Shown here piece by piece: positions 30,984 through 51,775 of a stretch of 64,000 nucleotides of DNA. This DNA comes from Komagataeibacter xylinus (GTDB taxonomy: Bacteria; Pseudomonadota; Alphaproteobacteria; Acetobacterales; Acetobacteraceae). The stretch is from NCBI RefSeq assembly GCF_009834365.1, contig NZ_CP041349.1, positions 169,862 through 233,861 on the forward strand, in the 5' to 3' direction. Every line of letters starts with the position of its first letter. Position 1 is the first letter of the stretch. The translations under genes and the position numbers were made by a program. The notes under the pieces were generated by a model, which was given only the letters and a program-made list of their open reading frames with translations, had not been told where the DNA came from and made no database searches.

Positions 30984-32135
30984 ATGGGTAAGGTTACGAG
31001 AAAACGGTAATCAAGTGATTCCAAGTCGCGAGTGGCACTCAAGGCAGTCTGTGGCGAATTGACGCTGGCAGAGCTGGCGTCTAAACATGGCGTGTATCAG
31101 ACGATGATCGCCCAACGGAAATGCCACGCTATCGCGGGGATGACGGGTATCTTTTCCGGGAAGTCGGGGTCAACAGCGTCGGCCAGTCCAGTTGATATAG
31201 AAAAGCTACATGCGAAAATCGGCGAACTGTAGGTGAAACGAGATTTTTTTAGGGATGCCTCTTGCTCAGCTGGGCGTAATTAGAGGCCGCAGATGACCGA
31301 CCTGATACAGCCGCGGCTCTCGGTGGTGCAGCCATACATACGCGACTTCAGCTTAAGTGGTCTGGCATTTATTACCGGCCTATGCCCGAAAACGTGGTGA
31401 ACTTGGCGTGGAAGCGGCTAATCGCGGTACAGCTCCTGAAGACACCGTATTAAGGGTCAGCGCAGATGACGCGTTATCTTCGGCGTCTGGACCACGAAGT
31501 TGGCCGCAAACGAGCCAGCAGGCTCATGCCAAAGATGGCGTCGCGGGCAATCTACCAGAAGCCCCGCACAACAGTGCCGCATCTTGAGCACCGGAAATAT
31601 CCCTATCTGCTGCGGGATCTGACGATCAACCGGCCCAACCAGACCTGGCGTTCTGATAGTACCTACACCTCCAGGAGAAGAGGCTTCCTCTACCTCATGG
31701 CGATCATGGGTTAGGCGACGCGCCGAGTTCCGCATCGAGGCGCTCCAAGAAGCACCGACGCGCTACGGTTCACCTGATATTTTCAATGCCAACCACGGTT
31801 CGCAATTCACGACGGCCCATTTCACCGAAGTATTGGAGGAAAGTTAGATCCGCATCAGCATGGACGGCCGAGGCCTGTGGCTGGACAATGTCTGCGTCGA
31901 GCGTCTATGGACGTCACTGAAATATGAGTGGGTCTACCTGCATGCATCTGAGACCGGCTCAGATCTCCGCGCGGGTCTCGCAAAGGGGATCGCCCATTAT
32001 AACGGGCAGCGTCTGCATACCCCGTTGGGTGAACTTACGCCTGATGAGGCGTATCATACCGCACCAACGCCATCTGGTCTGGGGTTAACCCCCGACCAGA
32101 TGGCCAGCAGCAATGCCGTCAGAATGGCGACATAA
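30984..32135 (+). pseudogene. decayed IS3-family insertion sequence (OrfA and OrfB)
   Basis: OrfA begins MGKVTRKR at 30984, then hits an in-frame stop where relatives have Tyr. It continues as LTLAELASKHGVYQTMIAQR and LHAKIGEL, ending in another stop near 31232. OrfB is recognisable from GIYYRP-like sequence (near 31365) through HLEHRKYPYLLRDLTINRP, the first catalytic region WRSDSTYTSRRRGFLYLM, then ISMDGRGLWLDNVCVERLW and KYEWVYLHASETGS. Several frameshifts and stops interrupt it. The copy cannot encode an active transposase. It differs from the intact IS3 element at 44543, so it is an older, separate insertion. Confidence 0.75.
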
Positions 32136-32332
32136 CATCAATCGGGTACAGGTTATTCAACGCCCAACACTGTCCTAACAAATGGCGCTGCCTCTTAGCA
32201 TCTGCAGAATCTGAACGTCAGAACCATAAAGATACTTCATCAATCCAACCCACCAAATCCCGAGACTGAACACCTCACAAGCACCTTCATTTTCCGGATA
32301 CATTAACTGATCGTGCATACACGACCGCAGGA

Positions 32333-33010
32333 TTATTTCCGCGTGCTGTAACGGGTAATAGCATGATCTCTAACATCCAGTAGATCGGCGAGACGCACCA
32401 GATCAGCAAGTGACTGTGCTGCCATTTTCTTCATTACATTAGCTCTATGAATTTTTACCGTTATCAAACTGAGACCCAAATCGCCCGCAATTTGTTTATT
32501 CATCAAGCCACTCGCGACTAACGCCATAATTTCTTTTTCACGTGGTGATAGGCTAGTGTAGAGTAGTTTTGTTTCACTAAGCTTCTTCTGTTCTCCCGCA
32601 TAGCGCAATGAGGCGCTGAGTGCGTCAGACACTGCGCGGAGCATAGCCTCCTCAGTGAACGGTTTTGCCAGAAAGTCGATAGCACCAGCCTTCATTCCTT
32701 TGACGGTCATCGGAATATCGCCATGGCCAGTTATTATAATAACCGGAATGTTCGCCCCGGACTCCATGAGATACTTCTGAAAGTCGAGGCCGTCGGTGGC
32801 CCGTAATCTTACGTCCAGGACAAGACAGCAAGGACTAGGCGGAAGTTGGGATTCAAGAAATTCCGAAGGATCTCCAAAGGTTGTAACCCTGAGATCAGCA
32901 GACCGAAAGAGACTGTCGAGCGACGCCCTTATGTCCGCATCGTCGTCAATGACGAGTACATGACCATTAGCTTCTTCGGGCATGCCACCCGCGGAAGATT
33001 TAGTTTCCAT
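32333..33010 (-). CDS. FixJ-family response regulator
   Basis: The 225-residue protein has a receiver domain (~17-130) with acidic pocket IDDDAD, phosphoacceptor Asp66 in LVLDVRLRATDG, conserved Thr in IIITGHGDIPM, and Lys in FLAKPF. A LuxR/FixJ-type HTH follows (~150-215, LSPREKEIMALVASGLMNKQ, then SLITVKIHRANVMKKM). It is translated from within the 3' end of the kinase gene (11-base overlap), so the two are coupled. FixJ-type regulators bind DNA as dimers after phosphorylation. Its targets may include the nearby oxalate and tat genes, which share a promoter element. Confidence 0.88.
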   Translation of the reverse strand: METKSSAGGMPEEANGHVLVIDDDADIRASLDSLFRSADLRVTTFGDPSEFLESQLPPSPCCLVLDVRLRATDGLDFQKYLMESGANIPVIIITGHGDIPMTVKGMKAGAIDFLAKPFTEEAMLRAVSDALSASLRYAGEQKKLSETKLLYTSLSPREKEIMALVASGLMNKQIAGDLGLSLITVKIHRANVMKKMAAQSLADLVRLADLLDVRDHAITRYSTRK

Positions 33011-34943
33011 GGGATGATCCTGCAGCGTTTAACATCACCGTTACGTTGGCGCCGCAAGGGACTCTGTTTTTTGCCTCAATGGTTCCCCCGTGACTTGTGA
33101 TGATTTCACGGCAGATCGAAAGACCCATTCCCATGCCCTGGGTTTTCGTTGTGACGAACGGTTCGAAAAGTTCAGTCGGGTCCAGACATGAGAAACCAGG
33201 ACCAGAATCTTCGAATGTCATGCGAATTGCATTGGATCCGGATTCACCGTCTGCAACCATGATGTCGAGTAACCTCGGTCGTTCGGTAATTGTCATCATG
33301 GCCTGAATGGCGTTCATCATCAGATTCATGATGACCTGCTGTATCTGTACCTTATCGCCCGAAATAGCCGGTAAGCCAGGCGATACCATGACGCGTAACT
33401 CGACATTTTTCGAAGATAATTCACCTCTTAGCAGCAGGATAACCTCTTCCAACAAGACAGCGGGGGAAAGAAGAGCCCGGCTGGCAGGTTCCTTCCGTGT
33501 AAGGGATCTGACGCGTTTGATTATCTCCCCAGCGCGCGTGCCGTTGCGCACGATCTGGTCAAAACAGGACAAAGCTTCGTTGATGTCAGCTTGTGGCCTT
33601 TTCAGCCAACGTTGGCCTGAACGTGCAAATGTAATGATCGCGGATAGCGGTTGATTGACTTCATGTGCAATCGAAATGGCGAGCTGCCCAAGCGTCGTGA
33701 CACGGTCAGCATGTGCGAGTTCCGATTGCGCCACCCGCAGTTTCATCTGCGCTTCATTTCGCTCCGTGATATCCAAGGCCATCACGAGAACATGTCGGTT
33801 TTCCACATCGTTCAATGGCCGGGTTACACGCAAAAAGACATCACGTGTCGCATTATTGCTGCCGTTAAACGTTGTTTCGATTTCATATTCGCTGTAACCT
33901 AACGCCAGCTGTCTTAGAACTTCACGAAAGACCGCCTGATCTTTGAAGAGACTTCGGAGCGAATTACCAGTAAGATCTTGTGGCGACGACGCACCCAGCA
34001 AGAGTGCTGCGGCTCCGTTTGCATCGCGAATATATGGATAATCTTGGAATTTATCCACGCGCGCGTCCCACAGTACAGAACTATGTGTTTCCCAGTCCTT
34101 GATTAATATGTTCATAACCGAACAGTCAACTTCAAAGATGGCGGACCCGACGGCCTGAAAGATCGCACTATATCGTTGCTCTGAACGCTCACGTTCCGCA
34201 GTCGCCTTACGTTGTTCGGTCAAATCAGCCCCGAATTCAATAACGCCGCATTCTCTCCCGTCGCTATCGATCCTGACAATCCATCTTGTGTCAATTACAA
34301 TGGTTTCCCCGGATCTGCGATTACGGGTAATCTCGCCGTTCCACTGCCCAGAAGACTTCAGGTCGTGCGCTGCATGAGCAGGCAACGGACTGCGCCCCAG
34401 TAAGTCAGAACTTTTTTTTCCAACCGCCTCGTCTTCTCGCCAACCATATAGATGTACTGCACCATCATTCCAGTAGGTGATCGTATCGTCCTGGTCACGA
34501 ATGATCACTGTGTCGTGGGTAAGGGCAAGCATCCGCACTTGTTCGGACAGTAATGTCCTCGTTCTCCTGTTTCTTGCCGAAAGTTGTGCGGCGACACCAA
34601 TTGCAACGATGCTAACGGCCAGACGAGCATATGGGCCGCCCAGAGGTTCACCGTAGTGCTTCAGCAAAAAAGACGTACAGGCCAGCGCGATGCAGCCTGC
34701 ACTTGTCAGAAGAATAATTGTTACGCCGCATGTATCTGCCACCAGAAACACGACGAGGACATAAAGAACCGCAAAGGCATCATGGAATTGTGTCAGAGTA
34801 TTAAGAATAAATACGCATATCGCAACAATAAAAGCGATGCATCGAGCCCCAAGGATGTAAAATCTTTTTGGTGCACCTCCACTCATGGCAAGGAAAGATA
34901 ATACCGGCGAGAACGTCACAACATAGGCTCCCAACGTCGTCAT
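33000..34943 (-). CDS. FixL/DctB-like PAS sensor histidine kinase
   Basis: About 647 residues from ATG 34943; a GTG at 34997 would add 18 residues. Several N-terminal membrane segments (~30-130) are followed by two PAS domains (~145-255 and ~265-400; YWNDGAVHLYGWREDEAVG, then a RDANGAAALLLG segment). The phosphoacceptor His is in SIAHEVNQPLSAI. The catalytic domain has the N box NLMMNAIQAM, EDSGPGF, and FVTTKTQGMGMGLSICREI. No haem-binding His typical of true FixL was confirmed, so the input signal is unknown. It lies downstream of the cytoplasmic oxalate decarboxylase on the same strand. Confidence 0.85.
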   Translation of the reverse strand: MTTLGAYVVTFSPVLSFLAMSGGAPKRFYILGARCIAFIVAICVFILNTLTQFHDAFAVLYVLVVFLVADTCGVTIILLTSAGCIALACTSFLLKHYGEPLGGPYARLAVSIVAIGVAAQLSARNRRTRTLLSEQVRMLALTHDTVIIRDQDDTITYWNDGAVHLYGWREDEAVGKKSSDLLGRSPLPAHAAHDLKSSGQWNGEITRNRRSGETIVIDTRWIVRIDSDGRECGVIEFGADLTEQRKATAERERSEQRYSAIFQAVGSAIFEVDCSVMNILIKDWETHSSVLWDARVDKFQDYPYIRDANGAAALLLGASSPQDLTGNSLRSLFKDQAVFREVLRQLALGYSEYEIETTFNGSNNATRDVFLRVTRPLNDVENRHVLVMALDITERNEAQMKLRVAQSELAHADRVTTLGQLAISIAHEVNQPLSAIITFARSGQRWLKRPQADINEALSCFDQIVRNGTRAGEIIKRVRSLTRKEPASRALLSPAVLLEEVILLLRGELSSKNVELRVMVSPGLPAISGDKVQIQQVIMNLMMNAIQAMMTITERPRLLDIMVADGESGSNAIRMTFEDSGPGFSCLDPTELFEPFVTTKTQGMGMGLSICREIITSHGGTIEAKNRVPCGANVTVMLNAAGSSHGN

Positions 34944-34944
34944 T

Positions 34945-34961
34945 CTGCCTGAGTCAGGCAG
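34945..34961. promoter_or_regulatory. perfect palindrome just before the sensor kinase start
   Basis: CTGCCTGA, one base, TCAGGCAG; eight-base perfect arms located immediately before ATG 34943. It could be an operator or a translation-controlling hairpin. Confidence 0.45.
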
Positions 34962-34996
34962 AGGGGTATAGCAGACCTTGCGGTGGAAGTGCACCA

Positions 34997-35014
34997 CGGT
35001 CTCACCGGAGACCG
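34997..35014. promoter_or_regulatory. inverted repeat between oxalate decarboxylase and kinase genes
   Basis: CGGTCTC, four bases, GAGACCG. A GC-rich hairpin in the 101-bp gap between the two minus-strand genes; no T-run follows, so attenuation or binding is more likely than simple termination. Confidence 0.4.
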
Positions 35015-35044
35015 ATGGGATTTCTTACTGGAAAGCGTCGTACG

Positions 35045-36217
35045 TCAGACCACGAGAGGCTTGGTTTTCGAAAGCGCTGCTATGGTCTCGTCATCAACAT
35101 TCAGATGCGCTTTCACCATATCATGTGGAGACAGGGCCAGCCACTGATTGGCTGAGAAGTCAGCAAACTGGGAGCTTTTAAACGCTTCAAGGAAAACCAG
35201 CGGTTCATCCCCGATATTTTCGAGGTAGTGACCCATGCCAAACGGGACATAACCGACGTCACCAGCACTATAGTCGAAGGTCCTCGCCTTCCCCCCCGAC
35301 GCAAAAACGGTCATCCGGGCTTTACCACGGATGAAATACTGCCATTCATCGTTATTGCTATGCCAATGCAGTTCCCTTAGCCGTCCCGGTTCCACGACCA
35401 CAATGGCAGCAGCGATCGTTGACGCGGCAGGGAAGTTTGTTGAATCGACAATTCTCACTTCACCCCCCGCTGCTTTTATCGGCTTCTGCTCCATGAGATG
35501 ATGTGTGTACTTAACCGGGCTTTGTCCCAGTGGGGAAGGCACCCGTTCATCTTCGATCGGCCCTGGAACGGCTCCTGAAAATATCCAGCGTGAATGCTCG
35601 ACATCCTTCGGAAGATTATCGAACTTCGCGGCTGGCACGCCAAAATTTTTGGCCAGAATGTGCCGGGGGGTATGGGCCAGCCAGTCGCTGATCAGGAAAG
35701 TCTCATTTTCAGAAAAGCTGCCATCGTCGAAAACAAGGAGAAACTCGCAGCCATCGTCTTCCAGACCCTGGATGGAATGAGGGACACCAGCTGGAAAATT
35801 CCAGATATCGCCAGCTTGAACATCATCGATAAAGTCGCGCCCCTGTGGGTCAAGCGCGGTTACCCTTGCTTTACCGGCGAGCATCAGGCCCCATTCGGCT
35901 TCCTTATGATAATGGAGTTCACGATACCCGCCGCGATTAAGTCGCATATTGACACCGGCAAGCGTCGTTGCCACCGGGAGTTCACGCTCGGTGATTTCGC
36001 GCGCCCATCCTCCGGTACCGAGACGGTTACGCGCCGTACCGTACGAGAACTTGAGGTTGGGAATGGTTCCCGCGTCGGTATCAGGCGACGCCATTAGGTC
36101 GGGGTTCTCGCGTTCTAATGGTAGATTGCGCGGTCCGAGGACCGTGCCGCCGCGGTTCCCGCGCTGAGGCTGAGGGGTTGTATCAGCAGGGGCTTCTTTC
36201 CAGGGTAATTCAACCAT
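35045..36217 (-). CDS. oxdC: oxalate decarboxylase, bicupin, cytoplasmic
   Basis: About 390 residues from ATG 36217 (MVELPWKE), preceded by GTGGGAAG. The upstream frame to 36460 is longer than the family and is not used. It matches Bacillus OxdC closely. Cupin 1 has RELHYHKEAEWGLMLAGKAR and cupin 2 has RELHWHSNNDEWQYFIRGKA, each with the His/His/Glu/His manganese ligands. The lid loop reads SENE, retaining the Glu that favours decarboxylation (oxalate to formate and CO2) over oxidation. No signal peptide, so it acts in the cytoplasm. A related copy with a Tat signal lies at 37250. Its probable promoter at 36314-36326 resembles the element before that copy and before tatA. Confidence 0.9.
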   Translation of the reverse strand: MVELPWKEAPADTTPQPQRGNRGGTVLGPRNLPLERENPDLMASPDTDAGTIPNLKFSYGTARNRLGTGGWAREITERELPVATTLAGVNMRLNRGGYRELHYHKEAEWGLMLAGKARVTALDPQGRDFIDDVQAGDIWNFPAGVPHSIQGLEDDGCEFLLVFDDGSFSENETFLISDWLAHTPRHILAKNFGVPAAKFDNLPKDVEHSRWIFSGAVPGPIEDERVPSPLGQSPVKYTHHLMEQKPIKAAGGEVRIVDSTNFPAASTIAAAIVVVEPGRLRELHWHSNNDEWQYFIRGKARMTVFASGGKARTFDYSAGDVGYVPFGMGHYLENIGDEPLVFLEAFKSSQFADFSANQWLALSPHDMVKAHLNVDDETIAALSKTKPLVV

Positions 36218-36313
36218 TTGGTAACTTCCCACTTTGGATTTTTGCTTGTCCGGCCGCACGCTTGCGTCTGGACGCATAACACCCGAGGATAAGGCAAGCG
36301 AGACATTCGAGCG

Positions 36314-36326
36314 ATTATACCAAGGT
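36314..36326 (-). promoter_or_regulatory. candidate promoter element for oxdC
   Basis: On the minus strand this reads ACCTTGGTATAAT. It matches 10 of 13 positions of the ACCTAAGTACAAT core shared at 37178 and 41796. The end TATAAT fits a -10 box about 90 bp before the chosen start. Confidence 0.45.
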
Positions 36327-36515
36327 ATGATTTCTTGGAGCGCCATTTTTCGGCAGTTTGCCCCATCCTTTTCGGTCAGTCGCCGACGGAGAACGAAATA
36401 CTGCGACCGACAGGAGTGCCCGTCCGGCGGGCACCAGCCGACCATAATAGCATCGTGCAATAACCTGCATATGTTAAATGCGATAACTTTTTCAATCAGG
36501 GAGGTAAACCGATTT

Positions 36516-36737
36516 ATGCGTAAACTTTTTTTTCTGGCGAGCTGCGCGTCTTTGATTCTATCGCCACTTTCGGGATTTTGTGCTGACCCAGAAATTCATC
36601 ATACGCGCCCGGGCGGTGAACCTGAACGTCTCGGTGATCAGGAGACAGCAGCGACTCCCCAGGAACCGACTTATTCCGCGCCCAGCGAGAAGAAGCCGCG
36701 GCACGTACTAAACCACAATCGTAAGGCAACCAGATAA
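36516..36737 (+). CDS. small exported protein (73 aa)
   Basis: Not recognised. It starts at ATG 36516, 11 bases after GGGAGG, a strong ribosome site. The signal peptide is MRKLFFLASCASLILSPLSG with cleavage near FCA. The mature ~50 residues are polar, Pro/Glu/Lys-rich and probably disordered (TRPGGEPERLGDQET, SEKKPRHVLNH). It is divergent from oxdC and upstream of the Tat-type bicupin. Role unknown; it may be a periplasmic partner of this island. Confidence 0.55.
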   Translation: MRKLFFLASCASLILSPLSGFCADPEIHHTRPGGEPERLGDQETAATPQEPTYSAPSEKKPRHVLNHNRKATR

Positions 36738-37177
36738 AAGATGGTTACACGGAGCGATGAGAACATCGCATCCTGCAGGGCATCAAGAAGAACTTACGTC
36801 ACACCCACCAGGTTCTCTGGTTTTAGACTGATGATAATAGCGGTTCATCATGACTGCTGTTGTCAATGATCCGTGATTACGTACATTCATGAGCGGGTGT
36901 TCAGTTAGCGTGCGGCACTACCATATGTCTGATCTGTAATGCTCTATCGCTGCCTCCTGAAGAGATATGAATACGCGGTGACGTGATCTCGAGTGGCGAA
37001 GTTTCTAATGCAAAAGCGGTGCAATCCGACGGACTGACCTGACAACGAAAAAGACTTTCCGAATACGGTCTCATCAAATCGGGCGTAAGCACGCACACGG
37101 ACGATCAGCGCGATGTAGGTTTGCCACTGCAAAAAATATCATAACCGTAAAGTTAATTTTAGATACTGCGTCCGTGA
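36738..37177. other. intergenic stretch upstream of the exported bicupin
   Basis: About 440 bp with no gene seen; several short frames are non-coding. It ends at the conserved 18-bp element that probably drives the next gene. Confidence 0.45.
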
Positions 37178-37195
37178 ACTAAACCTAAGTACAAT
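37178..37195 (+). promoter_or_regulatory. 18-bp element shared with the tatA promoter
   Basis: ACTAAACCTAAGTACAAT, identical to 41796-41813. TACAAT looks like a -10 hexamer, and the preceding bases could be an activator site covering the -35 region. The bicupin ATG is 54 bp downstream. Confidence 0.65.
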
Positions 37196-37249
37196 AGATA
37201 CTCTGAGCGCCGGTTCCTATTGTAATCATGGTAACCAACGGAGAATACC

Positions 37250-38488
37250 ATGAACCCAATGCAACGCAGAGGATTTCTTTCAGCCGCGAGCTTTTTCGGA
37301 CTTGCCGGCGCCGCACATGCGGCTACGTTCGGAAATCCTGACCGTCCGGCACAGGGCATGCAGAATGCTGTCTCGCCTTCAAGCCGTTCCGACCCGGGAC
37401 CGAAAAACCCTGCGCTCGCCTCGCAGTTTCCGGATTTCCAGTCTCCGCCGGCAACTGACGTAGACGGTATGCCCTTATTCTGGGCTTCGTTTAACAACGC
37501 ACATAAACGTATCCAGAACGGTGGCTGGGCTCGAGAAATTACCCAGGATGACTTTGCCATTTCCGAGGATATCTCGGGTGTCAACATGCGTCTCAGCGCT
37601 GGCGGCATTCGGGAGATGCACTGGCACCAGCAGGCAGAATGGGCAATCATGCTTACGGGCAAGTGCCGCATCACCACCCTTGACGAAGAAGGGCGTCCGA
37701 GCGTTGATGATGTTGAGGCTGGAGATCTCTGGTATTTCCCTCCCGGTCTGCCGCATTCCCTCCAGGGCCTTGGACCCGATGGCGCAGAATTCCTGCTCGC
37801 ATTCGACAATGGGAAATCCTCGGAGTTCAATACCCTCTTGGTGACGGATTGGCTCGCTCACACTCCGCCGGAAGTTCTTGCAAAAAACTTCGGCGTGCCA
37901 GAAGCGGCCTTCAAAAACATTCCGCTTGACAACCTGTGGATATTCCAGGGCGACATCCCACCGGATCTGCCGGTTGATCGGAAAAACGCCCGGGTCGTTC
38001 CCGGTGCCCAGAAAGTCATCTACAAACTTTCACAAGCACAACCTCTGTCCCGTACCCATGGAGGGATGGCGCAGGTTGCGGACAGTCGGAACTTTCCGAT
38101 CTCCAAGACTGTAGCCGCCGCTTTGGAAACCATAGAGCCGGGCGGCATGCGCGAAATGCATTGGCATCCAAACGCTGACGAATGGGCGTTCGTCATCAAA
38201 GGCAAGGCGCGCGTGACGGTGTTTAATACGGGGCCAAAAGCGCAGACCGCGAACTTTAATCCGGGCGACGTGTGGTATATTAAGAAAAGCCTCGGTCATT
38301 ACGTCGAAAATACGGGAAATGATGTCTTGCAGATCATTTCGGTATTCAAATCCGATCGCTTCGCTGAGGTGTCACTGACCGACTGGCTGACGCATGTGCC
38401 GCCGGAAATGGTCAGACAGACCCTGAATCTCGATCCAGACGTGCTTGCGCGATTCCCGACCGGGCGGCCTGACTTTATGCCCCTCTGA
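37250..38488 (+). CDS. Tat-exported bicupin, oxalate decarboxylase family
   Basis: The 412-residue protein starts with a twin-arginine signal (MNPMQRRGFLSAASFFGLAG, cleavage near AHA), so it is exported folded, as expected for a manganese protein. Cupin 1 has REMHWHQQAEWAIMLTGKCR and cupin 2 has REMHWHPNADEWAFVIKGKA. The lid reads SSEFN; the Glu is present but the loop differs from the SENS/SENE of classical decarboxylases, so activity could be decarboxylase or oxidase. It is about 50% similar in pattern to the cytoplasmic copy. A strong terminator follows. The accessory tatABC genes 4.7 kb downstream share its promoter element. Confidence 0.82.
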   Translation: MNPMQRRGFLSAASFFGLAGAAHAATFGNPDRPAQGMQNAVSPSSRSDPGPKNPALASQFPDFQSPPATDVDGMPLFWASFNNAHKRIQNGGWAREITQDDFAISEDISGVNMRLSAGGIREMHWHQQAEWAIMLTGKCRITTLDEEGRPSVDDVEAGDLWYFPPGLPHSLQGLGPDGAEFLLAFDNGKSSEFNTLLVTDWLAHTPPEVLAKNFGVPEAAFKNIPLDNLWIFQGDIPPDLPVDRKNARVVPGAQKVIYKLSQAQPLSRTHGGMAQVADSRNFPISKTVAAALETIEPGGMREMHWHPNADEWAFVIKGKARVTVFNTGPKAQTANFNPGDVWYIKKSLGHYVENTGNDVLQIISVFKSDRFAEVSLTDWLTHVPPEMVRQTLNLDPDVLARFPTGRPDFMPL

Positions 38489-38495
38489 CCAACCG

Positions 38496-38530
38496 ACCGC
38501 TCCCGCGTTAAATGGCGGGAGCGGTTTTTT
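38496..38530 (+). terminator. rho-independent terminator after the bicupin gene
   Basis: An 11-bp perfect stem (ACCGCTCCCGC / GCGGGAGCGGT) with an 8-base loop is followed directly by a run of T. It starts 8 bases after the stop. Confidence 0.9.
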
Positions 38531-38576
38531 CCCTTGTTATGCCCGCCTGTTTTTTTCGAAATCACGTCCTTGCAAA

Positions 38577-38858
38577 ATGGAGTGCCACGTGTCGTTGCGG
38601 GTAAAATTTGATCCGTCTTTCATTGGGCAGGAAGTCGCGCGCCAGTGCTTCAACGAAGGGCGGAATGCAGATGAGCTTGAATATTACCTTGCTGGCGCTT
38701 CATACGCGATATGCCTAACGCTAGCAAAAGACAAACCATGGATGAGCGCGGAGTTCGTTAATATAGGTAACACTATTGCAAAAGCTGGAATGCAGACCTT
38801 CATAGATCTGATGAAAAATAACTTTTTGACGAATGTAACGCCTATGGGAACGGCGTAA
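38577..38858 (+). CDS. hypothetical protein (93 aa)
   Basis: Not recognised. MECHVSLRVKFDPSF..., about 93 residues, cytoplasmic, helical, with an acidic N-terminal half (GRNADELEYYLAGASYAICL) and a C-terminal helix GMQTFIDLMKNNFL. It follows the terminator of the bicupin gene and has no close neighbour on its strand until the porin. The start was chosen at the first ATG after the terminator, but the ribosome site is weak. Confidence 0.45.
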   Translation: MECHVSLRVKFDPSFIGQEVARQCFNEGRNADELEYYLAGASYAICLTLAKDKPWMSAEFVNIGNTIAKAGMQTFIDLMKNNFLTNVTPMGTA

Positions 38859-39002
38859 TGCTATAAAGAAAATAACATGCCATTCCAACAATATAGACAG
38901 ATAGCGTCATGTTCTCAGAAACTGATACGTAGAATGTATAATGTGTCGTATATGATCGACTCTAAGACCGCCACTTCGCGCGAGCCAAATTGGTGAAGAT
39001 GA

Positions 39003-40337
39003 TTGAAGTGGTCTGATTCTTTTTTTTGCATGGCGTTTCTTTCGGGTGCATGCACTACAGCATGCGCTCAGGTTCCCCCTGTACGCTTCTTCAGTTCCGG
39101 CGTAACACCGCAGCAGATCGTTCCGGACAGCATTGACCCAATGTCTCATTTTTCCGGGAACTGGGGAGGTGCCCGAGACTGGCTTCTCAAGCGAGGAATT
39201 GACATCCGTTTATCCGACGCAAACGAGTTCTGGGCCGACCCAGTCGGTGGAGCGCAAGCATCAAATAACTACGTCGGGTCAACGGCGGTTGAAATGCTGG
39301 CGGATTTACATACTTTGACCGGGCTGCCTTTAGGGACATTTGACATCAGTGCCATGGAAATTCGTGGACGACCTTTCAGTAATGATCCTCTTTATGTTTT
39401 TAATCAGACTTCGAATATTGAAGCTGACGACAACACTAGGCTTTACGAGTTATGGTACAGTCAAAAATTCGCACATGGGCACTTTGCATTCAAAATCGGC
39501 AAGCTGGATCTTGGACATGACTTCATGATCAGCGATGTCGCTCTGAGCTTTTTGAATGCCTCTTTTTCATGGCCCATGATGCCCGATAACGATCTGTATG
39601 ACCAAGGCCCAGTATCTCCCGTGGCGACCCCTGCAGTGAGGCTACGTTACACGCTCTCGCAATGCTGGAATTTTCTGTTTGCAGTCGGCGATGATAACCC
39701 CATCGGGGCACCGTTCATCAATACGCAGGATCCGTGGAGCCAGAATAGCGATCCGTCTGGAACCCGGTTCAACTTCTCAACAGGCGCACTATTTTTTGCA
39801 GAATCCCAATATCGTAGGCGAATAGCGGGGAAAGAAGGCATATATAAAATTGGTGGTTACTTCGATACGGGACGATTTCCGGACCAGGTTGATTCAAGCC
39901 GCCTGCACAAAACCAATTGGTCCGTCTATGCCATCGCTGATCAGACCCTGCAGAAGTTCCGGAATTCAAGCGAACTCGACGCTTTCATTCGCGGTAACTG
40001 GACTGCCGATACCGACCGCAATCAGATCGTCTACGCCGTAGACGGTGGTATTGCTCTGAAGAACCCTCTTAACCGGGATGGTGATATCGTTGGACTTGGC
40101 GCTGGGGTGGGTGCCGCGAGCCACTCTTTGGCAAGAGCCGACCGGGTGGATGGCCTACCGGGGCAAAAGCGGGAATATCACCTGGAACTGACATATCAGG
40201 CGCAAGTCAATCCATGGCTGATGCTGCAGCCGGATATTCAAGGGATTCTGTCACCCAGTGGAGGCGTGCTCGACAACGCCGGCCGACGCGTCCGAAACGA
40301 AGCGATATTCGGCATCCACGGCGAAATAACCTTCTAA
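39003..40337 (+). CDS. OprB-like carbohydrate/organic-anion porin
   Basis: The 444-residue product (TTG start; ATG 39030 is the alternative) has a signal peptide ending CAQ. The OprB pattern follows: FSGNWGGARDWLLKRGIDIR, many short amphipathic beta strands, RLYELWYSQKFAHGHFAFKI, GKLDLGHDFM, and a C-terminal aromatic residue in ITF. Such 16-strand barrels let sugars or small acids cross the outer membrane. Position next to oxalate genes suggests it admits the substrate, but OprB proteins are common in acetic acid bacteria and the specificity is unknown. A possible extended -10 (TGTATAAT) lies at 38935-38942. Confidence 0.82.
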   Translation: MKWSDSFFCMAFLSGACTTACAQVPPVRFFSSGVTPQQIVPDSIDPMSHFSGNWGGARDWLLKRGIDIRLSDANEFWADPVGGAQASNNYVGSTAVEMLADLHTLTGLPLGTFDISAMEIRGRPFSNDPLYVFNQTSNIEADDNTRLYELWYSQKFAHGHFAFKIGKLDLGHDFMISDVALSFLNASFSWPMMPDNDLYDQGPVSPVATPAVRLRYTLSQCWNFLFAVGDDNPIGAPFINTQDPWSQNSDPSGTRFNFSTGALFFAESQYRRRIAGKEGIYKIGGYFDTGRFPDQVDSSRLHKTNWSVYAIADQTLQKFRNSSELDAFIRGNWTADTDRNQIVYAVDGGIALKNPLNRDGDIVGLGAGVGAASHSLARADRVDGLPGQKREYHLELTYQAQVNPWLMLQPDIQGILSPSGGVLDNAGRRVRNEAIFGIHGEITF

Positions 40338-40364
40338 TGAATAAATTGAAAGACTGTAAAAAAT

Positions 40365-40883
40365 ATGCGCAGACGTTCTCTACGTAAGCTTAACAAATGG
40401 CGTCACATGTCGGCTGTCCTCGCCTGCACGTACGCCTTAGTGTCTGGTCGGTTGTCCAGCGCGTATGGAAAAGAAACCCATGAGTTGATATGCCCAGGAG
40501 TACAGGCCGGTATCATGCTGACAGTGTTTGGCACTTTCAACGGTTATCCGCATTCGGCACTCCATGACGCTGTTGTGCGCGGCATTGCATGCCCCCGTGG
40601 AGAAACACAACTACGGGCGTTTGAGAAAATTGGCGTGCCGCCCCCACACCTGAGGATCAACGTTGAACACCCCGCCGGCCAGGGTCTCACGGGAGCCGTT
40701 TCCGTTACGCTGTTCTGGCGGGGGCGGCTTATCCTGGGAGAACGGAAAAACCTCTCTTTATTGGCCAAAACCCGGGCTCCTTCCATCGTCTCTAGCGATA
40801 TTAATGTCATGACCGATCGGTTGTGGCATGACCTCGCTGAACTCGACCGAGCGACAGGATCCGCTAAGGCGGTCGGCCCGTGA
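40365..40883 (+). CDS. small exported hypothetical protein
   Basis: Not recognised. The 172-residue product has an Arg-rich N-terminus (MRRRSLRKLNKWRH) and a hydrophobic segment that may be a signal or anchor (~15-35). Conserved-looking strands include ELICPGVQAGIMLTVFGTFN and a basic C-terminal half with a VSVTLFWRGRLILG segment. Start ATG 28 bp after the porin stop suggests co-transcription. Likely periplasmic; function unknown. Confidence 0.5.
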   Translation: MRRRSLRKLNKWRHMSAVLACTYALVSGRLSSAYGKETHELICPGVQAGIMLTVFGTFNGYPHSALHDAVVRGIACPRGETQLRAFEKIGVPPPHLRINVEHPAGQGLTGAVSVTLFWRGRLILGERKNLSLLAKTRAPSIVSSDINVMTDRLWHDLAELDRATGSAKAVGP

Positions 40884-41795
40884 CGGTTTCTCACGCCCGG
40901 CTGCCTTAGAGTGGTATGATTGAACATAGACATTGCCTTGCTTTTCGGCTGACCATGCCGCTTCAGTCCGACGAGCAAATCGCGCTGATACCGCATCGCT
41001 TCCGGCAAACTTCGGCGCGGCGCGCGCGATTAGGGTCTCGCTGATACGCCTCGTCACTGACGCCGAGCTGACAGCCACGCGAGTTATGGCAACATTGCGC
41101 CGGCACAGCCGCGCTCGGGTGCCAATGCCTGTGGCTTCAGTGGCCCTGACAGAGGGGCTGGGACAGGCCTGACGCCGACATGACCGCCGCACGCGTTCTC
41201 TGCTGCTTATGTCAGCTCAGAAACTTAAAGCGTTGCTCTATGGAGCACATAGCGCCAGCAGGTCAATGGAGCCGCAGCGCGACTGCAGTCAGTTAGGTTA
41301 GACCACAACTGCAGCCGAGCTGAACGGGCCTAAACCGGGCTGAGCTCTCACTTTTCGACAGGTGGGACTGGGATGGCCTAGTGACGAACTGCTCGGAACA
41401 GCGACACCATCCTTGCAAAATTAATCCAGGGGAGATTTACAGACCTGACCGCGTCTGGTCGCATTTTATCCTTGGCTGGACCGCCGTCGTCGAGACACTA
41501 CGTAGCCTTCGCGGCTGTCATAATGTCCTGCAATCGGGCATTGACGCATGATTTCAGCCGACCATGCCGAACTTCGTGCGGATAGAAGACAGCTACCCAA
41601 ACGGTCCAACCCAGTCACCAGATTGGGCGCGGACAATACAGCGCCTTAACTCATACTTCCGCGTACCGGTGCGTCCCAATCCGCACGCCCATTCCTGTCG
41701 ATCGCGGTTCACATGAGATGATGTTCATTTATGGCACGGAGAGCCGCATGCGACACATCAACAGCCACCGTCTGGATTGCCGCAATTTTTGACTC
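40884..41795. other. non-coding/degraded region before tatA
   Basis: About 0.9 kb with no recognised gene. Overlapping frames at 40933-41192 on both strands have biased GC composition without start signals, and stops abound after 41200. It may be a remnant of a deleted gene. Confidence 0.45.
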
Positions 41796-41813
41796 ACTAA
41801 ACCTAAGTACAAT
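41796..41813 (+). promoter_or_regulatory. 18-bp element shared with the bicupin promoter
   Basis: ACTAAACCTAAGTACAAT, identical to 37178-37195. It lies 181 bp before tatA, implying a long leader or additional control. Confidence 0.65.
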
Positions 41814-41994
41814 GGCGACCTCAATATTATGCGCTCATGGTGCTTCCAGGTGCAGCGGCGAGTTCCTCATCCCCATGCGCGAGTCATGAGACGAAACCCG
41901 CGTAGAGACGAGGAACTTCCATGTCGGTGCGGCCTGTTATTCCCGGTCGGCCCAATCAACCGATGGCGCGCGCATAACACTGAGGAGATAAAAT

Positions 41995-42219
41995 ATGGGT
42001 TCATTTAGTATCTGGCACTGGGCACTCGTTTTCGGCGTGGTCCTTGTTCTTTTTGGTGGAGGGAAACGCCTTTCATCTACGATGGGTGATCTTGGGAGGG
42101 GTCTCAAGGTCTTCCGTAAGGAGATCAGCGATCTTAGCACCGACGATCCGCCGACCTCGCTGGAGGATAAGCGCCCTGTAGTCACTGAGCATATCAACAA
42201 AGAGGCTGTCCCTTCGTGA
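41995..42219 (+). CDS. tatA: Tat translocase subunit TatA
   Basis: 74 residues. One N-terminal transmembrane helix (WHWALVFGVVLVLFGGGKRL) is followed by an amphipathic helix (TMGDLGRGLKVFRKEISDL) and an acidic tail. The FGG hinge is present. TatA multimers form the passage for folded twin-arginine proteins. The next gene overlaps its stop. With tatB and tatC downstream this is a full Tat set. Confidence 0.88.
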   Translation: MGSFSIWHWALVFGVVLVLFGGGKRLSSTMGDLGRGLKVFRKEISDLSTDDPPTSLEDKRPVVTEHINKEAVPS

Positions 42220-42797
42220 CAGGACGGCAATGTGGTTACAAAGGAGCGTCCGATTGTTGTGAGAACGGCATGATCTTTCATCCAACGAATTGTCACAGTC
42301 TCGCCCCCATACGTTTTATACTTCGATGTGGAATTCTTGTAGCCCTTCTACTTCCTTCTGGTGCTGCCATGTCTCGACAACCTACCTCCCGTGGAGCACC
42401 GCGAAAGGAATTCATGCTCCATGCTGAGGGGCAGCAAATATATGTATGCCACCGATCCGCGACAGGAGCATTAGAATGGAAGCTCGACGAACCAGCGGCA
42501 GAATTATTCGAAGGGTATGTGTACTATGGGATACATTCGGCCGGCCCGAGTTGGTTACTATCTGATGGGTCATCCGTTCGAGCCACCGTAATGGAGGTGA
42601 CACATTCGGCGAGGCATACCGACGTGCCGCAATTGCATTTGAAGGTTACGCAACATGGGGGCAGGGGACTGCTTAGTGGCGCGCGCTACGTCGATCGCGT
42701 GCAGACCATGGGCGGGGCATTGTCAGGTACGTGTACGCTAGAGGACCTCAGCTTCGGAGTGCCCTATGAAGCCAACTATAGGTTCACATTTGATTAA
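42216..42797 (+). CDS. DUF3455-like exported protein
   Basis: 193 residues from a GTG overlapping the tatA stop (GTGA); ATG 42270 is more likely and gives 175 residues with a hydrophobic export signal (RCGILVALLLPSGAAM). The mature part reads EGQQIYVCHRSATGALEWKL, AGPSWLLSDGSSVRATVMEV and VPYEANYRF. This matches DUF3455 proteins, which are secreted beta-rich proteins of unknown function. It is inserted between tatA and tatB, an unusual position that suggests it is a client or partner of the local export system. Confidence 0.65.
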   Translation: MTGRQCGYKGASDCCENGMIFHPTNCHSLAPIRFILRCGILVALLLPSGAAMSRQPTSRGAPRKEFMLHAEGQQIYVCHRSATGALEWKLDEPAAELFEGYVYYGIHSAGPSWLLSDGSSVRATVMEVTHSARHTDVPQLHLKVTQHGGRGLLSGARYVDRVQTMGGALSGTCTLEDLSFGVPYEANYRFTFD

Positions 42798-43128
42798 GAA
42801 TTCCCCGCGCTGCGTATTGCCATAAAGCACAGGCAAACGATCCCTTTACATCGTGGAACGCTGGCGTGAGGCGATCGCTGCCTGCGCGGGTTCCTACGAC
42901 AATCCACATGATTCTCGCCGTGCGGAGCCGTCTAATTGCTCGGTGCGACGCTGGTGCCCGTCATCTATGGCACCACAGATTTCACGCTGAAAAGGGATAT
43001 GTTGGAGAGCGGGTTTCCATATGACTAGGAATGTGGCCGAAACTATTGACGTCTGAGAGGCCACGAATGGACCAACCTAAAAAAGTTCTGTCGATCACCA
43101 GAACTGCAGGTAAAAAGGACAAAAATAC
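42798..43128. other. intergenic region between the DUF3455-like gene and tatB
   Basis: 331 bp, no gene recognised. Fragments such as VERWREAIAACAG in one frame suggest remnants. No clear promoter was singled out. Confidence 0.35.
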
Positions 43129-43527
43129 ATGTTTGGACTTTCGTGGAGCGAAATTTTGGTGGTAGCGGGGCTCAGCGTAATGCTTCTGCGGCCAGAAGAT
43201 CTGCCTGTCATCATGCGCGGTCTAAAGGAAGCCCGAAAAAAAATAGGTGAATTGCGTGGTGAGTTTGTCCAAAGAATTTCTGACATCAGTAGAGAACTAG
43301 AACTCAGCGAAATTCGAAACCAAGTGCGATCATTCGAGCAGTCAGTTGATCCTCGTCGCATCATGGATTGTCTTCAGCCACATACCGAATATAGATCTGG
43401 CGCCGAGCAAAAAAAAGTCATCGTGGCGATGTCCACGCACAACACAACGAACGTGATGGCAGACCACGCCGAGCGGGTCAACGCGGTACTGCCGCCAGAT
43501 CATGCTCCGCCTCATGAGCAGAAATAA
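43129..43527 (+). CDS. tatB: Tat translocase subunit TatB
   Basis: 132 residues. The N-terminus MFGLSWSEILVVAGLSVMLL and LRPEDLPVIMRGLKEARKKI form the TatB membrane helix with Glu at position 8 and the following amphipathic helix. A charged coiled-coil-like part and polar tail follow. TatB with TatC recognises twin-arginine signals. tatC starts 21 bp later. Confidence 0.88.
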   Translation: MFGLSWSEILVVAGLSVMLLRPEDLPVIMRGLKEARKKIGELRGEFVQRISDISRELELSEIRNQVRSFEQSVDPRRIMDCLQPHTEYRSGAEQKKVIVAMSTHNTTNVMADHAERVNAVLPPDHAPPHEQK

Positions 43528-43547
43528 GCTTCTGCTTCGGAGATTTT

Positions 43548-44330
43548 ATGATGGACCATGTTCAAACCGCCCGCCTGGCAGACAGCCCCGTAAGCATATG
43601 GGAGCATATCTCGGAACTCAGGCGGCGCCTAATCTGGTCACTATGCAGTATCGTGGCCTGTTTTATATTCTGTTACCATTTTTCAGACAGGATATATGAC
43701 TTTGTCGCAGAGCCATTAACAGCCTTACTGCGCCGTGAAGGCGATCATCCCCAGCTCATTTTTACTGCACTAAGCGAAGCTTTTTTTACATACATAAGGC
43801 TTTCAATATTTTCTTCCGTATTTATATCAATACCATTTGTGTTGTTGCAGGTCTGGATGTTCGTATCGCCCGGACTCTATCCCAAGGAGAAGCGAGCTTT
43901 TGCGACTTTATTAATATCAGTCCCCCTATTTTTTTTGTTGGGAGCCGCTTTGGCATATTTTGTGGTGCTGCCGCTGGCATGGAAATTTTTTCTTTCATTC
44001 CAGGCCGCAGGAGGCCCTGATGGCACTCAAATACAACTTCAGGCCAAAATCTCCGAATACTTAAGCCTTGTGATGCAAATCGTTACGGCTTTTGGTGCTG
44101 CCTTCGAATTACCCGTGATTTTGTCAGCTCTATGTTATCTCGGACTCATAAAGGGAAGTCACTTAAGGAGCTTTCGGCGCTATGCCTGCGTGGGTTCGTT
44201 CGCCATCGCCGCCATAATCACTCCTCCCGATGTGATTACTCAAGTGTCGTTGGCTGTCCCGTTGATGCTGCTATACGAAGTCTCTATTCTCGCTTCTGGC
44301 GTAATCGAACGGACGGCTGACAATCGCTAG
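43548..44330 (+). CDS. tatC: Tat translocase subunit TatC
   Basis: 260 residues with six membrane segments. Conserved TatC features: N-terminal SIWEHISELRRRLIWSL (Glu of the signal-binding face), the FVSPGLYPKEKRAF loop, FFLGAALAYFVVLPL-like helix, and LGLIKGSHLRSFRRYACVGS, IAAIITPPDVITQ. It completes an accessory tatABC on the mobile element. Base composition is lower in GC than in the transfer genes. The Tat-type bicupin nearby is the likely client. Confidence 0.9.
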   Translation: MMDHVQTARLADSPVSIWEHISELRRRLIWSLCSIVACFIFCYHFSDRIYDFVAEPLTALLRREGDHPQLIFTALSEAFFTYIRLSIFSSVFISIPFVLLQVWMFVSPGLYPKEKRAFATLLISVPLFFLLGAALAYFVVLPLAWKFFLSFQAAGGPDGTQIQLQAKISEYLSLVMQIVTAFGAAFELPVILSALCYLGLIKGSHLRSFRRYACVGSFAIAAIITPPDVITQVSLAVPLMLLYEVSILASGVIERTADNR

Positions 44331-44542
44331 CATCAGGACCATTAGATTGTGACATCGAACTGCAATGGGCAGACCGTGGCTAAAAAGGAAACGCTCCTTC
44401 GGACAAACTGGCTTTCCTGTCTGAGCACCGGGGACACAGACTTGACCATATAATCGGCCAACGCATTTGGCAGGATCGAATACCAACTGCTGCACTCTGA
44501 AATCACATGGCTATGCGGCCATTTACAGCCCGCGGTTGCAGT
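44331..44542. other. short intergenic stretch before IS3
   Basis: No gene seen; ends at the left terminal repeat of the IS3-family element. Confidence 0.4.
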
Positions 44543-44609
44543 GGACCTGTGACGGTTTTGTGCCGGTTGACTGAGCGTTTAAAGCTTTCAACAAGAGAGG
44601 CATGATACC

Positions 44610-44894
44610 ATGGCATTGAAGCAGACAGAAGAGTTTCGCCGCGAGGCGGTCAGGATCGCGCTCAGCAGCGGTTTGCCCAGGACGCAGGCGGCGGCGGATC
44701 TGGGGATTGGCAAATCAACGCTGAGCCACTGGATTTCGCAGTATCGGTCGAGCGATCTGACAGCAACAGCGGCTGAAGCGCAGACGGATCTCGTCCGGGA
44801 GAATGAGCGCCTTCGCCTGGAAAACCGTGTCCTACGGGAGGAGAGGGAAATATTAAAAAAAGCCACGCAGTTCTTCGCGAGCCAAAAGACGTGA
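44610..44894 (+). CDS. IS3-family transposase OrfA
   Basis: 94 residues: an HTH (FRREAVRIALSSGLPRTQAA, DLGIGKSTLSHW) and a C-terminal leucine-zipper helix (ENERLRLENRVLREEREILK). OrfA binds the terminal repeats and regulates transposition. A run of seven A at 44855-44861 sits in frame near its end, a typical -1 slippery site; the -1 frame is open from there into OrfB, allowing a fused OrfAB transposase. Confidence 0.85.
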   Translation: MALKQTEEFRREAVRIALSSGLPRTQAAADLGIGKSTLSHWISQYRSSDLTATAAEAQTDLVRENERLRLENRVLREEREILKKATQFFASQKT

Positions 44895-45748
44895 GGTTCG
44901 CGTTTATTGGGACGCATCGTGACCGCTGGCCCATCGTGCGCCTGTGTCGGGTCCTGCAGGTCTCGACGCGTGGCTACCGGGCATGGGTTTCCAGGCCCAT
45001 GTGCGAGCGCCAGCGCACCGACCTGAAGGTCCTGGCGCATATCCGCGAGCATTTTGCCCTGAGCAACCGGACCTATGGCCGTCCGAGGATGACCATGGAG
45101 CTCAAGGAAGCAGGGCTTGCTGTTGGTGAGCATCGTGTGGGGCGACTGATGAACGCCAACGATCTTCGTCCCGTGCGTACGCGTCGGCACGAAGCCACGA
45201 CCGATAGTCATCATACCCTTGGTTTTGCAGACAATATTCTGGGCCGCAACTTCATGACTGATGCCGCCAACCGGAAATGGCCAGGCGACATCAGTTATAT
45301 CTGGACCAGCGAAGGCTGGCTTTACCTTGCTGTCGTCATTGACCTGTTCAGCCGCCGCGTTATCGGTTGGGCCGCCAGTGACCGGATCAAAAAGGACCTT
45401 GCTATCAGGGCGCTCGATATGGCGGTGCGTCTACGCAATCCACCACCTGGCTGTATTTTCCATTCTGATCGCGGCAGCCAATACTGTTCCCATGATTTCC
45501 AGAAAAAATTGACTGAATACAGGATGACACCGTCCATGTCCGGCAAGGGAAATTGCTACGACAACGCCGTGATCGAGACCTTTTTCAAAAGCCTGAAGGC
45601 CGAAATGCTCTGGAGACAAAGTTGGCCAACATGGCGTCAGGCAATAGCCGCCATCTTTCAATACATCAACGGCTTCTATAATCCGCGACGGCGCCACTCC
45701 TATCTCGGGAGTATCAGCCCACTCGCTTTCGAGGCCAAAGCCGCGTAA
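44891..45748 (+). CDS. IS3-family transposase OrfB, DDE integrase domain
   Basis: 285 residues from GTG overlapping the OrfA stop. An N-terminal HTH_21 region (LAHIREHFALSNRTYGRPRM after VLAH) precedes the rve domain. Catalytic residues: Asp in WPGDISYIWTSEGWLYLAVV, Asp in FHSDRGSQYCS, Glu in YDNAVIETFFKSLK. The C-terminus has YINGFYNPRRRHSYLG. All three acidic residues are present, so it should be functional when made as an OrfAB fusion. Confidence 0.88.
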   Translation: MRFAFIGTHRDRWPIVRLCRVLQVSTRGYRAWVSRPMCERQRTDLKVLAHIREHFALSNRTYGRPRMTMELKEAGLAVGEHRVGRLMNANDLRPVRTRRHEATTDSHHTLGFADNILGRNFMTDAANRKWPGDISYIWTSEGWLYLAVVIDLFSRRVIGWAASDRIKKDLAIRALDMAVRLRNPPPGCIFHSDRGSQYCSHDFQKKLTEYRMTPSMSGKGNCYDNAVIETFFKSLKAEMLWRQSWPTWRQAIAAIFQYINGFYNPRRRHSYLGSISPLAFEAKAA

Positions 45749-51757: not shown

Positions 51758-51775
51758 TCCAACTCCCCCGCTCCT

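What the first reader, a model, noticed from the sequence alone, without database searches (positions are those of the whole stretch)
32333..44330. Oxalate decarboxylase pair carried with its own tatABC and FixLJ-type regulators
One oxalate decarboxylase is cytoplasmic (no signal, SENE lid) and a second bicupin has a twin-arginine signal. A complete accessory tatA/tatB/tatC set lies in the same 12-kb lower-GC segment, with a PAS histidine kinase/FixJ pair and an OprB-like porin. Mn-cupins fold before export, so they depend on Tat. A mobile unit that brings both the enzyme and its export machine would be unusual. The coupling is inferred from proximity and shared promoter DNA.
Basis: partly seen in the sequence, partly recalled or inferred. 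Interest (0 to 1): 0.88.

Follow-up and report, generated by a model that had tools for sequence, protein, structure and literature searches.

The report
Oxalate enzymes with linked Tat exporter
A plasmid of a vinegar-type bacterium carries two predicted oxalate-destroying enzymes, a sensor-regulator pair and a spare exporter for folded proteins; the exporter genes share a rare upstream sequence with the exported enzyme, which suggests that enzyme and exporter travel and switch on together.

Summary
A 19.8-kb insert (25,991-45,787) in a pGX5-type conjugative plasmid of a Komagataeibacter carries OxdC-HK-RR (minus strand), a divergent bicupin with an RR signal, an OprB porin and tatA-DUF3455-tatB-tatC. 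The host also has one chromosomal TatC and TatA. The accessory TatC belongs to a rare lineage (three clusters among the best 120 hits) and is not a recent copy of the host's.

The coupling no longer rests on proximity alone. (1) An exact 18-nt element starts 72 nt before the bicupin and 199 nt before tatA; its 17-nt core has no other match in the 3.98-Mb genome with up to 3 mismatches. (2) A Gluconacetobacter (G332) has the same OxdC-HK-RR/bicupin cluster with a tatA of the accessory type 62 nt after the bicupin, and DUF3455 and a formate transporter near by.

Against an obligatory pair: six genomes with close RR-bicupins have one TatC and one TatA, and one 89% TatC relative shows no linked HK or bicupin. 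Best reading: a mobile oxalate cassette with co-regulated, non-exclusive Tat capacity. Nearest precedent: phoD-tatAdCd of Bacillus subtilis.

The parts
25991..45787 (.). 19,797-bp insert in a pGX5-type conjugative Komagataeibacter plasmid, in place of about 3 kb of pGX5 that holds a Fic gene
   Evidence: blastn of window 23000-48000 against CP004365 203000-213000: backbone matches end at 25990 and resume at 45788; annotation and typing
32333..33010 (-). response regulator, receiver + LuxR/GerE domain (FixJ architecture)
   Evidence: PF00072, PF00196; 64% identical to the G332 regulator in the same gene order
33000..34997 (-). PAS sensor histidine kinase, hydrophobic N-terminal part (first ~20 residues uncertain; P0241, 100% identical, has 644 aa)
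   Evidence: PAS, HisKA, HATPase_c
35045..36217 (-). oxalate decarboxylase bicupin without signal (start Met82 of the longest ORF)
   Evidence: TIGR03404 555.4 bits; OxdC PDB match 5.9e-153; start supported by orthologues
36314..36327 (-). candidate operator with palindrome TACCTTGGTA, 101-110 nt upstream of the OxdC start
   Evidence: pattern written after seeing the sites; TACCAAGGTA lies 115-124 nt before OxdC in G332
37178..37197 (+). shared element ACTAAACCTAAGTACAATAG, starting 72 nt upstream of the bicupin
37250..38488 (+). oxalate decarboxylase bicupin with twin-arginine signal (R6, R7)
   Evidence: TIGR03404 526.9 bits; RR invariant in 11 aligned sequences
38495..38526 (+). terminator-like hairpin with T-run directly after the bicupin
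   Evidence: 16 such sites in the stretch, 8.7 in shuffles
39003..40337 (+). OprB-type porin; no copy of the shared element upstream
   Evidence: PF04966 3e-62
41796..41815 (+). shared element ACTAAACCTAAGTACAATGG, starting 199 nt upstream of tatA
41995..42219 (+). accessory tatA
   Evidence: PF02416 39.5 bits, cut-off 21; groups with the G332 accessory TatA
42216..42797 (+). DUF3455 protein (ATG start 42270 also possible), probable Sec signal by eye
   Evidence: PF11937 2.1e-21; family found in 2 of 20 genomes searched, G000 and G332
43129..43527 (+). accessory tatB (weak by profile)
   Evidence: TIGR01410 30.3 bits, cut-off 56.5; position before tatC
43548..44330 (+). accessory tatC
   Evidence: TIGR00945 210.9 bits, cut-off 132.7; PF00902
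44542..45786 (+). IS3-family element forming the right end of the insert
   Evidence: 26-nt perfect inverted repeats; orfA/orfB Pfam; 92.7% to an IS3 of an Acetobacter plasmid

Best explanation
A plasmid-borne oxalate-degradation cassette. A membrane kinase and a LuxR-type regulator sense oxalate or the accompanying acid stress (inferred) and act on operators of the type TACC-NN-GGTA / ACCTAAGTAC (inferred; only the sites are seen). They switch on three units together: OxdC-HK-RR, the RR-signal bicupin, and tatA-DUF3455-(tatB-tatC). OxdC removes oxalate in the cytoplasm. The bicupin folds and takes its Mn in the cytoplasm (known for the Tat-exported Mn-bicupin MncA) and is exported folded to the periplasm, where it removes oxalate before entry; OprB may admit the substrate. 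The accessory Tat proteins add export capacity for a strongly induced folded enzyme. They use ordinary RR recognition and probably share substrates with the host's Tat rather than forming an exclusive route. Shown: genes, insert, shared element, synteny in G332. Inferred: inducer, regulator binding, enzyme activity, export, capacity role.
For: 18-nt exact repeat before bicupin and tatA; its 17-nt core has these 2 matches only in 3.98 Mb with up to 3 mismatches, the backward control 4; 0 of 1000 shuffles in local alignment. Gluconacetobacter G332: OxdC 85% - HK 61% - RR 64%, divergent bicupin 87%, then tatA after 62 nt; the TatAs of window and G332 separate from 11 housekeeping TatAs, 100/90, on a short alignment; DUF3455 in G000 and G332 only, of 20 genomes; a second TatA in G000 and G332 only, of 12 genomes. 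HK P0246 and TatC P0003 (Gluconobacter MAG) report the same longest contig, 134,187. HK/RR flank the bicupin in G048 and G219. TatC signal-binding residues intact. tatA of window and G332: pN 0.225, pS 0.867. A simple RR scan of the contig in pieces flags four genes; the bicupin is the one that looks like a Tat signal, the other three (window 4872, L173 12551, L176 7859) were judged false by eye.
Against: Six genomes with 72-82% RR-bicupins have one TatC and one TatA. TatC relative P0002 (89%, longest contig 138,839) has no HK or bicupin cluster of that contig length in the lists; the 134,187 contig shows no bicupin among the 120 best. G332 has an accessory tatA but no accessory tatB or tatC in the stretch read, and one TatC elsewhere, so the full set is seen in one genome only. 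The element sits at different distances from its two genes. The window bicupin site matches G332's modestly (32 of 1000 shuffles) and G048's not in the gapped test (278 of 1000). A matrix from three G332 sites scores two other places on the contig (13.61, 13.11) above the bicupin and tatA sites (11.6).
Confidence: 0.62

Rival explanations
1. Dedicated translocase: the bicupin is exported only or mainly by the accessory TatABC, as PhoD is by TatAdCd.
For: Shared element; same cluster in G332 with tatA 62 nt after the bicupin gene; precedent of phoD-tatAdCd, co-induced and strictly dependent (passages of PMC3068169).
Against: RR signals are kept in six genomes without an accessory TatC or TatA; RR-binding residues of the accessory TatC are ordinary; G332 has one TatC only.
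Confidence: 0.15
2. Passenger: tatABC was carried in by chance next to the oxalate genes (IS-rich mosaic plasmid) and has no functional link with them.
For: Insert is a mosaic with an integrase-core remnant and a complete IS3; TatC relative P0002 without a linked HK or bicupin in the lists; other genomes with the bicupin lack an accessory tat.
Against: Exact shared element found nowhere else in the genome; accessory tatA and DUF3455 at the G332 oxalate cluster; HK and TatC contig-length match.
Confidence: 0.18
3. The accessory Tat serves another exported protein (for example a substrate on the chromosome), and the shared element is only a common stress-regulator site.
For: TatC keeps general RR recognition; one TatC relative appears apart from the bicupin in the lists.
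Against: No other convincing RR signal on the 233.9-kb contig by a simple scan; element found only before the bicupin and tatA. Chromosomal substrates were not scanned.
Confidence: 0.05

Closest known systems
phoD-tatAd-tatCd of Bacillus subtilis (PMC3068169, passages read)
   Same: Tat substrate gene beside its own extra tat genes, co-induced; host has another Tat.
   Different: TatAC type, chromosomal loci, phosphate-controlled, strict dependence shown by experiment; here TatABC type, plasmid-borne, oxalate enzyme, dependence untested.
MncA of Synechocystis (PDB 2vqa; PMC11742986, passages read)
   Same: Mn bicupin oxalate decarboxylase, Tat substrate that folds in the cytosol; sequence relative of the window bicupin.
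   Different: The passages read say nothing of extra tat genes; MncA is a more distant relative than OxdC (239 against 364 bits).
OxdC of B. subtilis (PDB 1j58, 5vg3)
   Same: Both window bicupins align over both domains with the metal ligands and the lid Glu.
   Different: OxdC is cytosolic (PMC11742986); the window RR-bicupin has Ser364 where OxdC has E333.
Genomes with more than one tatC (PMC3827258, passages read)
   Same: Extra tatC with substrate genes such as phoD or ywbN near by; about 5% of species had two or more tatC.
   Different: That survey of 2012 names Ilyobacter as the one plasmid-encoded tatC; no oxalate link in the passages read.
FixL/FixJ
   Same: PAS histidine kinase + receiver-LuxR regulator.
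   Different: Scores below the equivalog cut-offs; hydrophobic N-terminal part; linked to oxalate genes.

Membership tests
TatABC translocase | TatC family profile | tested here: met
   TIGR00945 210.9 bits, cut-off 132.7; PF00902 231.9, cut-off 25.1
TatABC translocase | TatC residues that bind the RR motif (E. coli H12, E15, F94, Y100, E103) | tested here: met
   H20, E23, F105, Y111, E114 by the alignment, numbers checked; roles from passages of PMC13323110
TatABC translocase | TatA | tested here: met
   PF02416 39.5 bits, cut-off 21; TIGR01411 53.4, just under its 53.9
TatABC translocase | TatB | tested here: inconclusive
   TIGR01410 30.3 bits, cut-off 56.5; no Pfam hit; position and N-terminus (Glu8) fit; usual Gly-Pro hinge (recalled) is Arg-Pro
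TatABC translocase | transports folded RR proteins | not testable with these tools
   needs export assay
Oxalate decarboxylase bicupin | family profile | tested here: met
   TIGR03404 555.4 and 526.9 bits, cut-off 254.2
Oxalate decarboxylase bicupin | 3 His + 1 Glu in each cupin and the lid Glu | tested here: met
   H124, H126, E130, H169, H304, H306, E311, H350, E192 invariant in 11 sequences and aligned to OxdC; OxdC_cyt by alignment
Oxalate decarboxylase bicupin | decarboxylase activity | not testable with these tools
   needs enzyme assay
Tat substrate | RR motif, h-region, AxA | tested here: met
   MNPMQRRGFLSAASFFGLAGAAHAA; R6, R7 invariant in 11; no signal-peptide predictor on hand
FixLJ | FixL and FixJ equivalog scores | tested here: not met
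   FixL 182.5 bits against 850; FixJ 192.3 against 255
Substrate-dedicated Tat (phoD-tatAdCd type) | substrate gene near tat genes under common control | tested here: inconclusive
   same insert and shared element; the control itself is inferred
Substrate-dedicated Tat (phoD-tatAdCd type) | export depends on that Tat | not testable with these tools
   comparative data speak against an obligatory need

The most novel reading that the evidence does not exclude
A mobile 'enzyme plus own folded-protein exporter' cassette: a conjugative plasmid of acetic acid bacteria moves a periplasmic Mn-bicupin together with a co-regulated accessory Tat machine, assembled stepwise from a bicupin-tatA cluster (as in Gluconacetobacter G332) to a complete tatABC, so that a new host can at once export a highly induced folded enzyme.
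Probability: 0.4. Interest if true: 0.75.

Novelty: new variant of a known kind. Interest (0 to 1): 0.6.

Why it matters
Tat capacity and specificity could limit horizontal transfer of periplasmic metalloenzymes. A natural unit that moves a Tat-dependent enzyme with co-regulated Tat genes would make this testable, and would give a TatABC-type counterpart, in a Gram-negative, of phoD-tatAdCd. The pair of accessory systems (tatA only in G332, tatABC here) lets one ask which Tat component limits export.

Tried and rejected
Plasmid collection: no PLSDB record covers the cluster; hits to the region are the IS3 element and the backbone next to it; TatC matches there, 120 records, are below 60%. Named species genomes: best of the 80 loci kept (of 218) is 59% identical, so no close accessory TatC (records of the own genome may be left out there). 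Genus searches: second TatC in 1 of 19 of the own genus and, with P0003 as query, 0 of 26 of G218's genus. HK in genus g31 (Acetobacter): 0 of 49, although a protein named after Acetobacter persici matches at 74%, so absence is not proven. Viral contigs: nothing. The family count of HK, 3 of 397 at E 1e-120, is a lower bound: three candidates per genome were scored and the G048 and G219 kinases did not ring.

A common operator for the whole cluster was rejected: the upstream regions of OprB, tatB, DUF3455 and the 172-aa ORF show no match above shuffles. The same test gave 47 of 200 shuffles for OxdC, 2 of 200 for the G048 bicupin, 34 of 200 for the G219 bicupin, nothing notable for five further bicupin regions, and an unexplained 0 of 200 hit on the other strand before G142 OxdC. 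The pattern WACCTWNGTAYNRT was written after seeing the sites, so its 3 hits against 0.01 expected are not independent. A weight matrix from three G332 sites, chosen by eye, ranks the OxdC site first and second (both strands) and tatA and bicupin sites fifth and sixth in the window, but two places elsewhere on the contig score higher than these; with G048 added, tatA is 8th and the bicupin 19th, with all seven sites 6th and 9th. Recent duplication of the host tatC was rejected: the accessory clade (100/100) is apart from the Komagataeibacter clade, with a warning of long branches. Papers: judged by titles and the starts of abstracts, the searches listed none on an oxalate decarboxylase with accessory tat genes; only open-licence papers are held.
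Full report
WHERE IT IS. The window is the last 64 kb of contig C2 (233,861 bp) of a 3.98-Mb genome. A 3.7-kb stretch around its chromosomal tatC is 94% identical to Komagataeibacter xylinus. Window 1-25,000 is 98.2% identical to plasmid pGX5 of K. xylinus E25 and most of 46,400-60,450 is 96% identical; pGX5 is typed as conjugative. Backbone similarity stops at 25,990 and resumes at 45,788, so 19,797 bp stand in place of about 3 kb of pGX5 with a Fic gene. The right end coincides with a complete IS3-family element with 26-nt inverted repeats. An integrase-core remnant (31,466-32,135; the first part under the Pfam cut-off) lies to the left of the regulator genes and is a different element. GC is about 0.50-0.56 in the insert and mostly about 0.57-0.66 in the flanks from 2-kb windows.

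WHAT IT HOLDS. Minus strand: OxdC (Met82 start), histidine kinase, response regulator. Plus strand: RR-signal bicupin, OprB porin, a 172-aa ORF without family, tatA, DUF3455, tatB, tatC. Both bicupins pass TIGR03404 (555.4 and 526.9 bits, cut-off 254.2) and align with B. subtilis OxdC over both cupins with the metal ligands and the lid Glu. The RR-bicupin has Ser364 at the place of OxdC E333. These two are the matches that the bicupin query has in this genome. The bicupin N-terminus is MNPMQRRGFLSAASFFGLAGAAHAA; R6 and R7 are invariant in an alignment of 11 sequences, the window's and ten that I chose from the 120 listed. The genome has one further TatC (56% identical) and one further TatA (53%), both on contig C1.

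HOW RARE THE ACCESSORY TAT IS. In a search of 5.8 billion proteins (8,000 candidates scored, 120 listed), three clusters stand apart, at 99, 89 and 64% identity (P0001-P0003); the other 117 listed are at 60% or less. In a tree of 33 TatCs the window protein, P0002 and P0003 form a clade (100/100) apart from the Komagataeibacter chromosomal copy; the program warned of long branches. A second TatC occurs in 2 of 299 Acetobacteraceae genomes: this one and G080, whose two copies are 52 and 53% identical to the query; 14 of the 299 gave no match. In the own genus it is 1 of 19 and in the genus of G218, with P0003 as query, 0 of 26. The accessory TatC keeps the five residues that contact the RR motif in E. 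coli.

LINK 1, SHARED ELEMENT. ACTAAACCTAAGTACAAT occurs at 37178 (starting 72 nt before the bicupin) and 41796 (starting 199 nt before tatA). The 17-nt core, allowing 3 mismatches, has these 2 exact matches and no other in the whole genome; the backward control pattern has 4. Local alignment of the two upstream regions is reached by 0 of 1000 shuffles. OxdC-HK-RR has a related palindrome, TACCTTGGTA, 101-110 nt before OxdC. In G332 TACCAAGGTA, the same palindrome on the other strand, lies 115-124 nt before OxdC, and in G048 it lies between the formate/nitrite transporter and the kinase gene, whose exact starts are uncertain. The G332-to-G048 match is reached by 2 of 1000 shuffles, window OxdC to G332 OxdC by 42, window bicupin to G332 bicupin by 32, window bicupin to G048 bicupin by 278, although an ungapped test gave 2 of 200 for the last. 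So an operator family is plausible, and the bicupin-tatA identity is the one link that is strong by itself.

LINK 2, SYNTENY IN ANOTHER GENUS. G332 belongs to genus g43, whose members G215, G277, G123, G174 and G042 match named Gluconacetobacter records at 100%. It holds OxdC 85%, HK 61%, RR 64% in the same order, a divergent bicupin 87%, and, 62 nt downstream of the bicupin on the same strand, a 74-aa TatA (67% over 61 codons), with a strong stem-loop of -29.5 kcal/mol between them. Close by are DUF3455, a formate/nitrite transporter, a molybdopterin oxidoreductase (formate-dehydrogenase type by inference) and a MoaA-like gene; VirB8 and TrbI genes lie on the other side. No accessory tatB or tatC was found in the 37 kb read, and G332 has one TatC, elsewhere. 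The TatAs of G000 and G332 separate from 11 housekeeping TatAs (100/90; short alignment). Of 12 genomes chosen for having bicupin or HK relatives, G000 and G332 alone have a second TatA; nine have one and G415 gave none. Of 20 genomes, G000 and G332 alone have DUF3455. tatA of window and G332 looks constrained (pN 0.225, pS 0.867, synonymous sites saturated).

LINK 3, CONTIG LENGTHS. HK cluster P0246 and TatC cluster P0003, both named after a Gluconobacter potus MAG, report the same longest contig, 134,187 bases. That is taken as co-location; the contig was not seen.

AGAINST OBLIGATORY COUPLING. G048, G219, G073, G071, G251 and G056 have bicupins of 72-82% identity, each with an RR signal, with one TatC and one TatA. 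G048 and G219 carry HK (42%) and RR (50%) beside the bicupin but no tat match there; G048 also has FdhD, a molybdopterin oxidoreductase and a formate/nitrite transporter there. So the wider unit may be bicupin plus regulators plus formate handling, to which Tat parts were added. P0002 (89% TatC) has a longest contig of 138,839 bases, a length that no listed HK or bicupin cluster reports; only 120 rows are listed, so this is suggestive. The 134,187 contig has no bicupin among the rows listed.

MECHANISM AND PRECEDENT. Passages of PMC11742986 state that MncA is a Mn-dependent oxalate decarboxylase and a Tat substrate that folds and traps Mn in the cytosol. Passages of PMC3068169 state that phoD lies upstream of tatAd-tatCd, that all three are induced by phosphate starvation and that PhoD secretion needs TatAdCd. 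Passages of PMC3827258 give about 5% of species with two or more tatC and one plasmid-encoded tatC, in Ilyobacter, in a survey of 2012. Passages of PMC8254039 place catalysis at the N-terminal Mn site. Together with the data above the most likely reading is a mobile oxalate cassette that brings co-regulated extra Tat capacity, with ordinary RR recognition and overlap with the host's Tat.

Noticed in passing
window 43129-43527: Accessory TatB reads RPEDLP where a Gly-Pro hinge is usual (recalled); it scores well below the TatB equivalog cut-off.
   Followed up: no
window 37250-38488, Ser364: The RR-bicupin has Ser at the place of OxdC E333; of the 11 aligned sequences P0138, P0139 and P0177 keep Glu there and the other eight have Ser or Thr.
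   Followed up: partly
window 29187-30562: A GDSL/SGNH hydrolase-like gene split over two overlapping frames, probably broken.
   Followed up: no
window 26048-28183: Alpha/beta hydrolase (PF20091) at the left end of the insert.
   Followed up: no
window 40365-40883: 172-aa ORF with a signal-like N-terminus and no family, between OprB and tatA; two family-less secreted-looking proteins also lie by the G332 cluster (L183 9464-10075, L184 387-998).
   Followed up: no
plasmid records: TatC matches occur on 33 Acinetobacter plasmid records, all below 60% identity; the Acinetobacter rows shown are at 32%.
   Followed up: no
L004 11133-12801: A 56-kb Methylobacterium plasmid carries tatA, tatB and tatC near Tad pilus genes.
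   Followed up: partly
L183 10836-10892: Very stable stem-loop (-29.5 kcal/mol, z -5.5) between bicupin and tatA in G332, without a T-run; in the window a terminator-like hairpin follows the bicupin.
   Followed up: partly
L165 upstream of 10083 (-): The region before OxdC of G142 holds a 14-of-19 match to the shared element on the other strand, reached by 0 of 200 shuffles.
   Followed up: no
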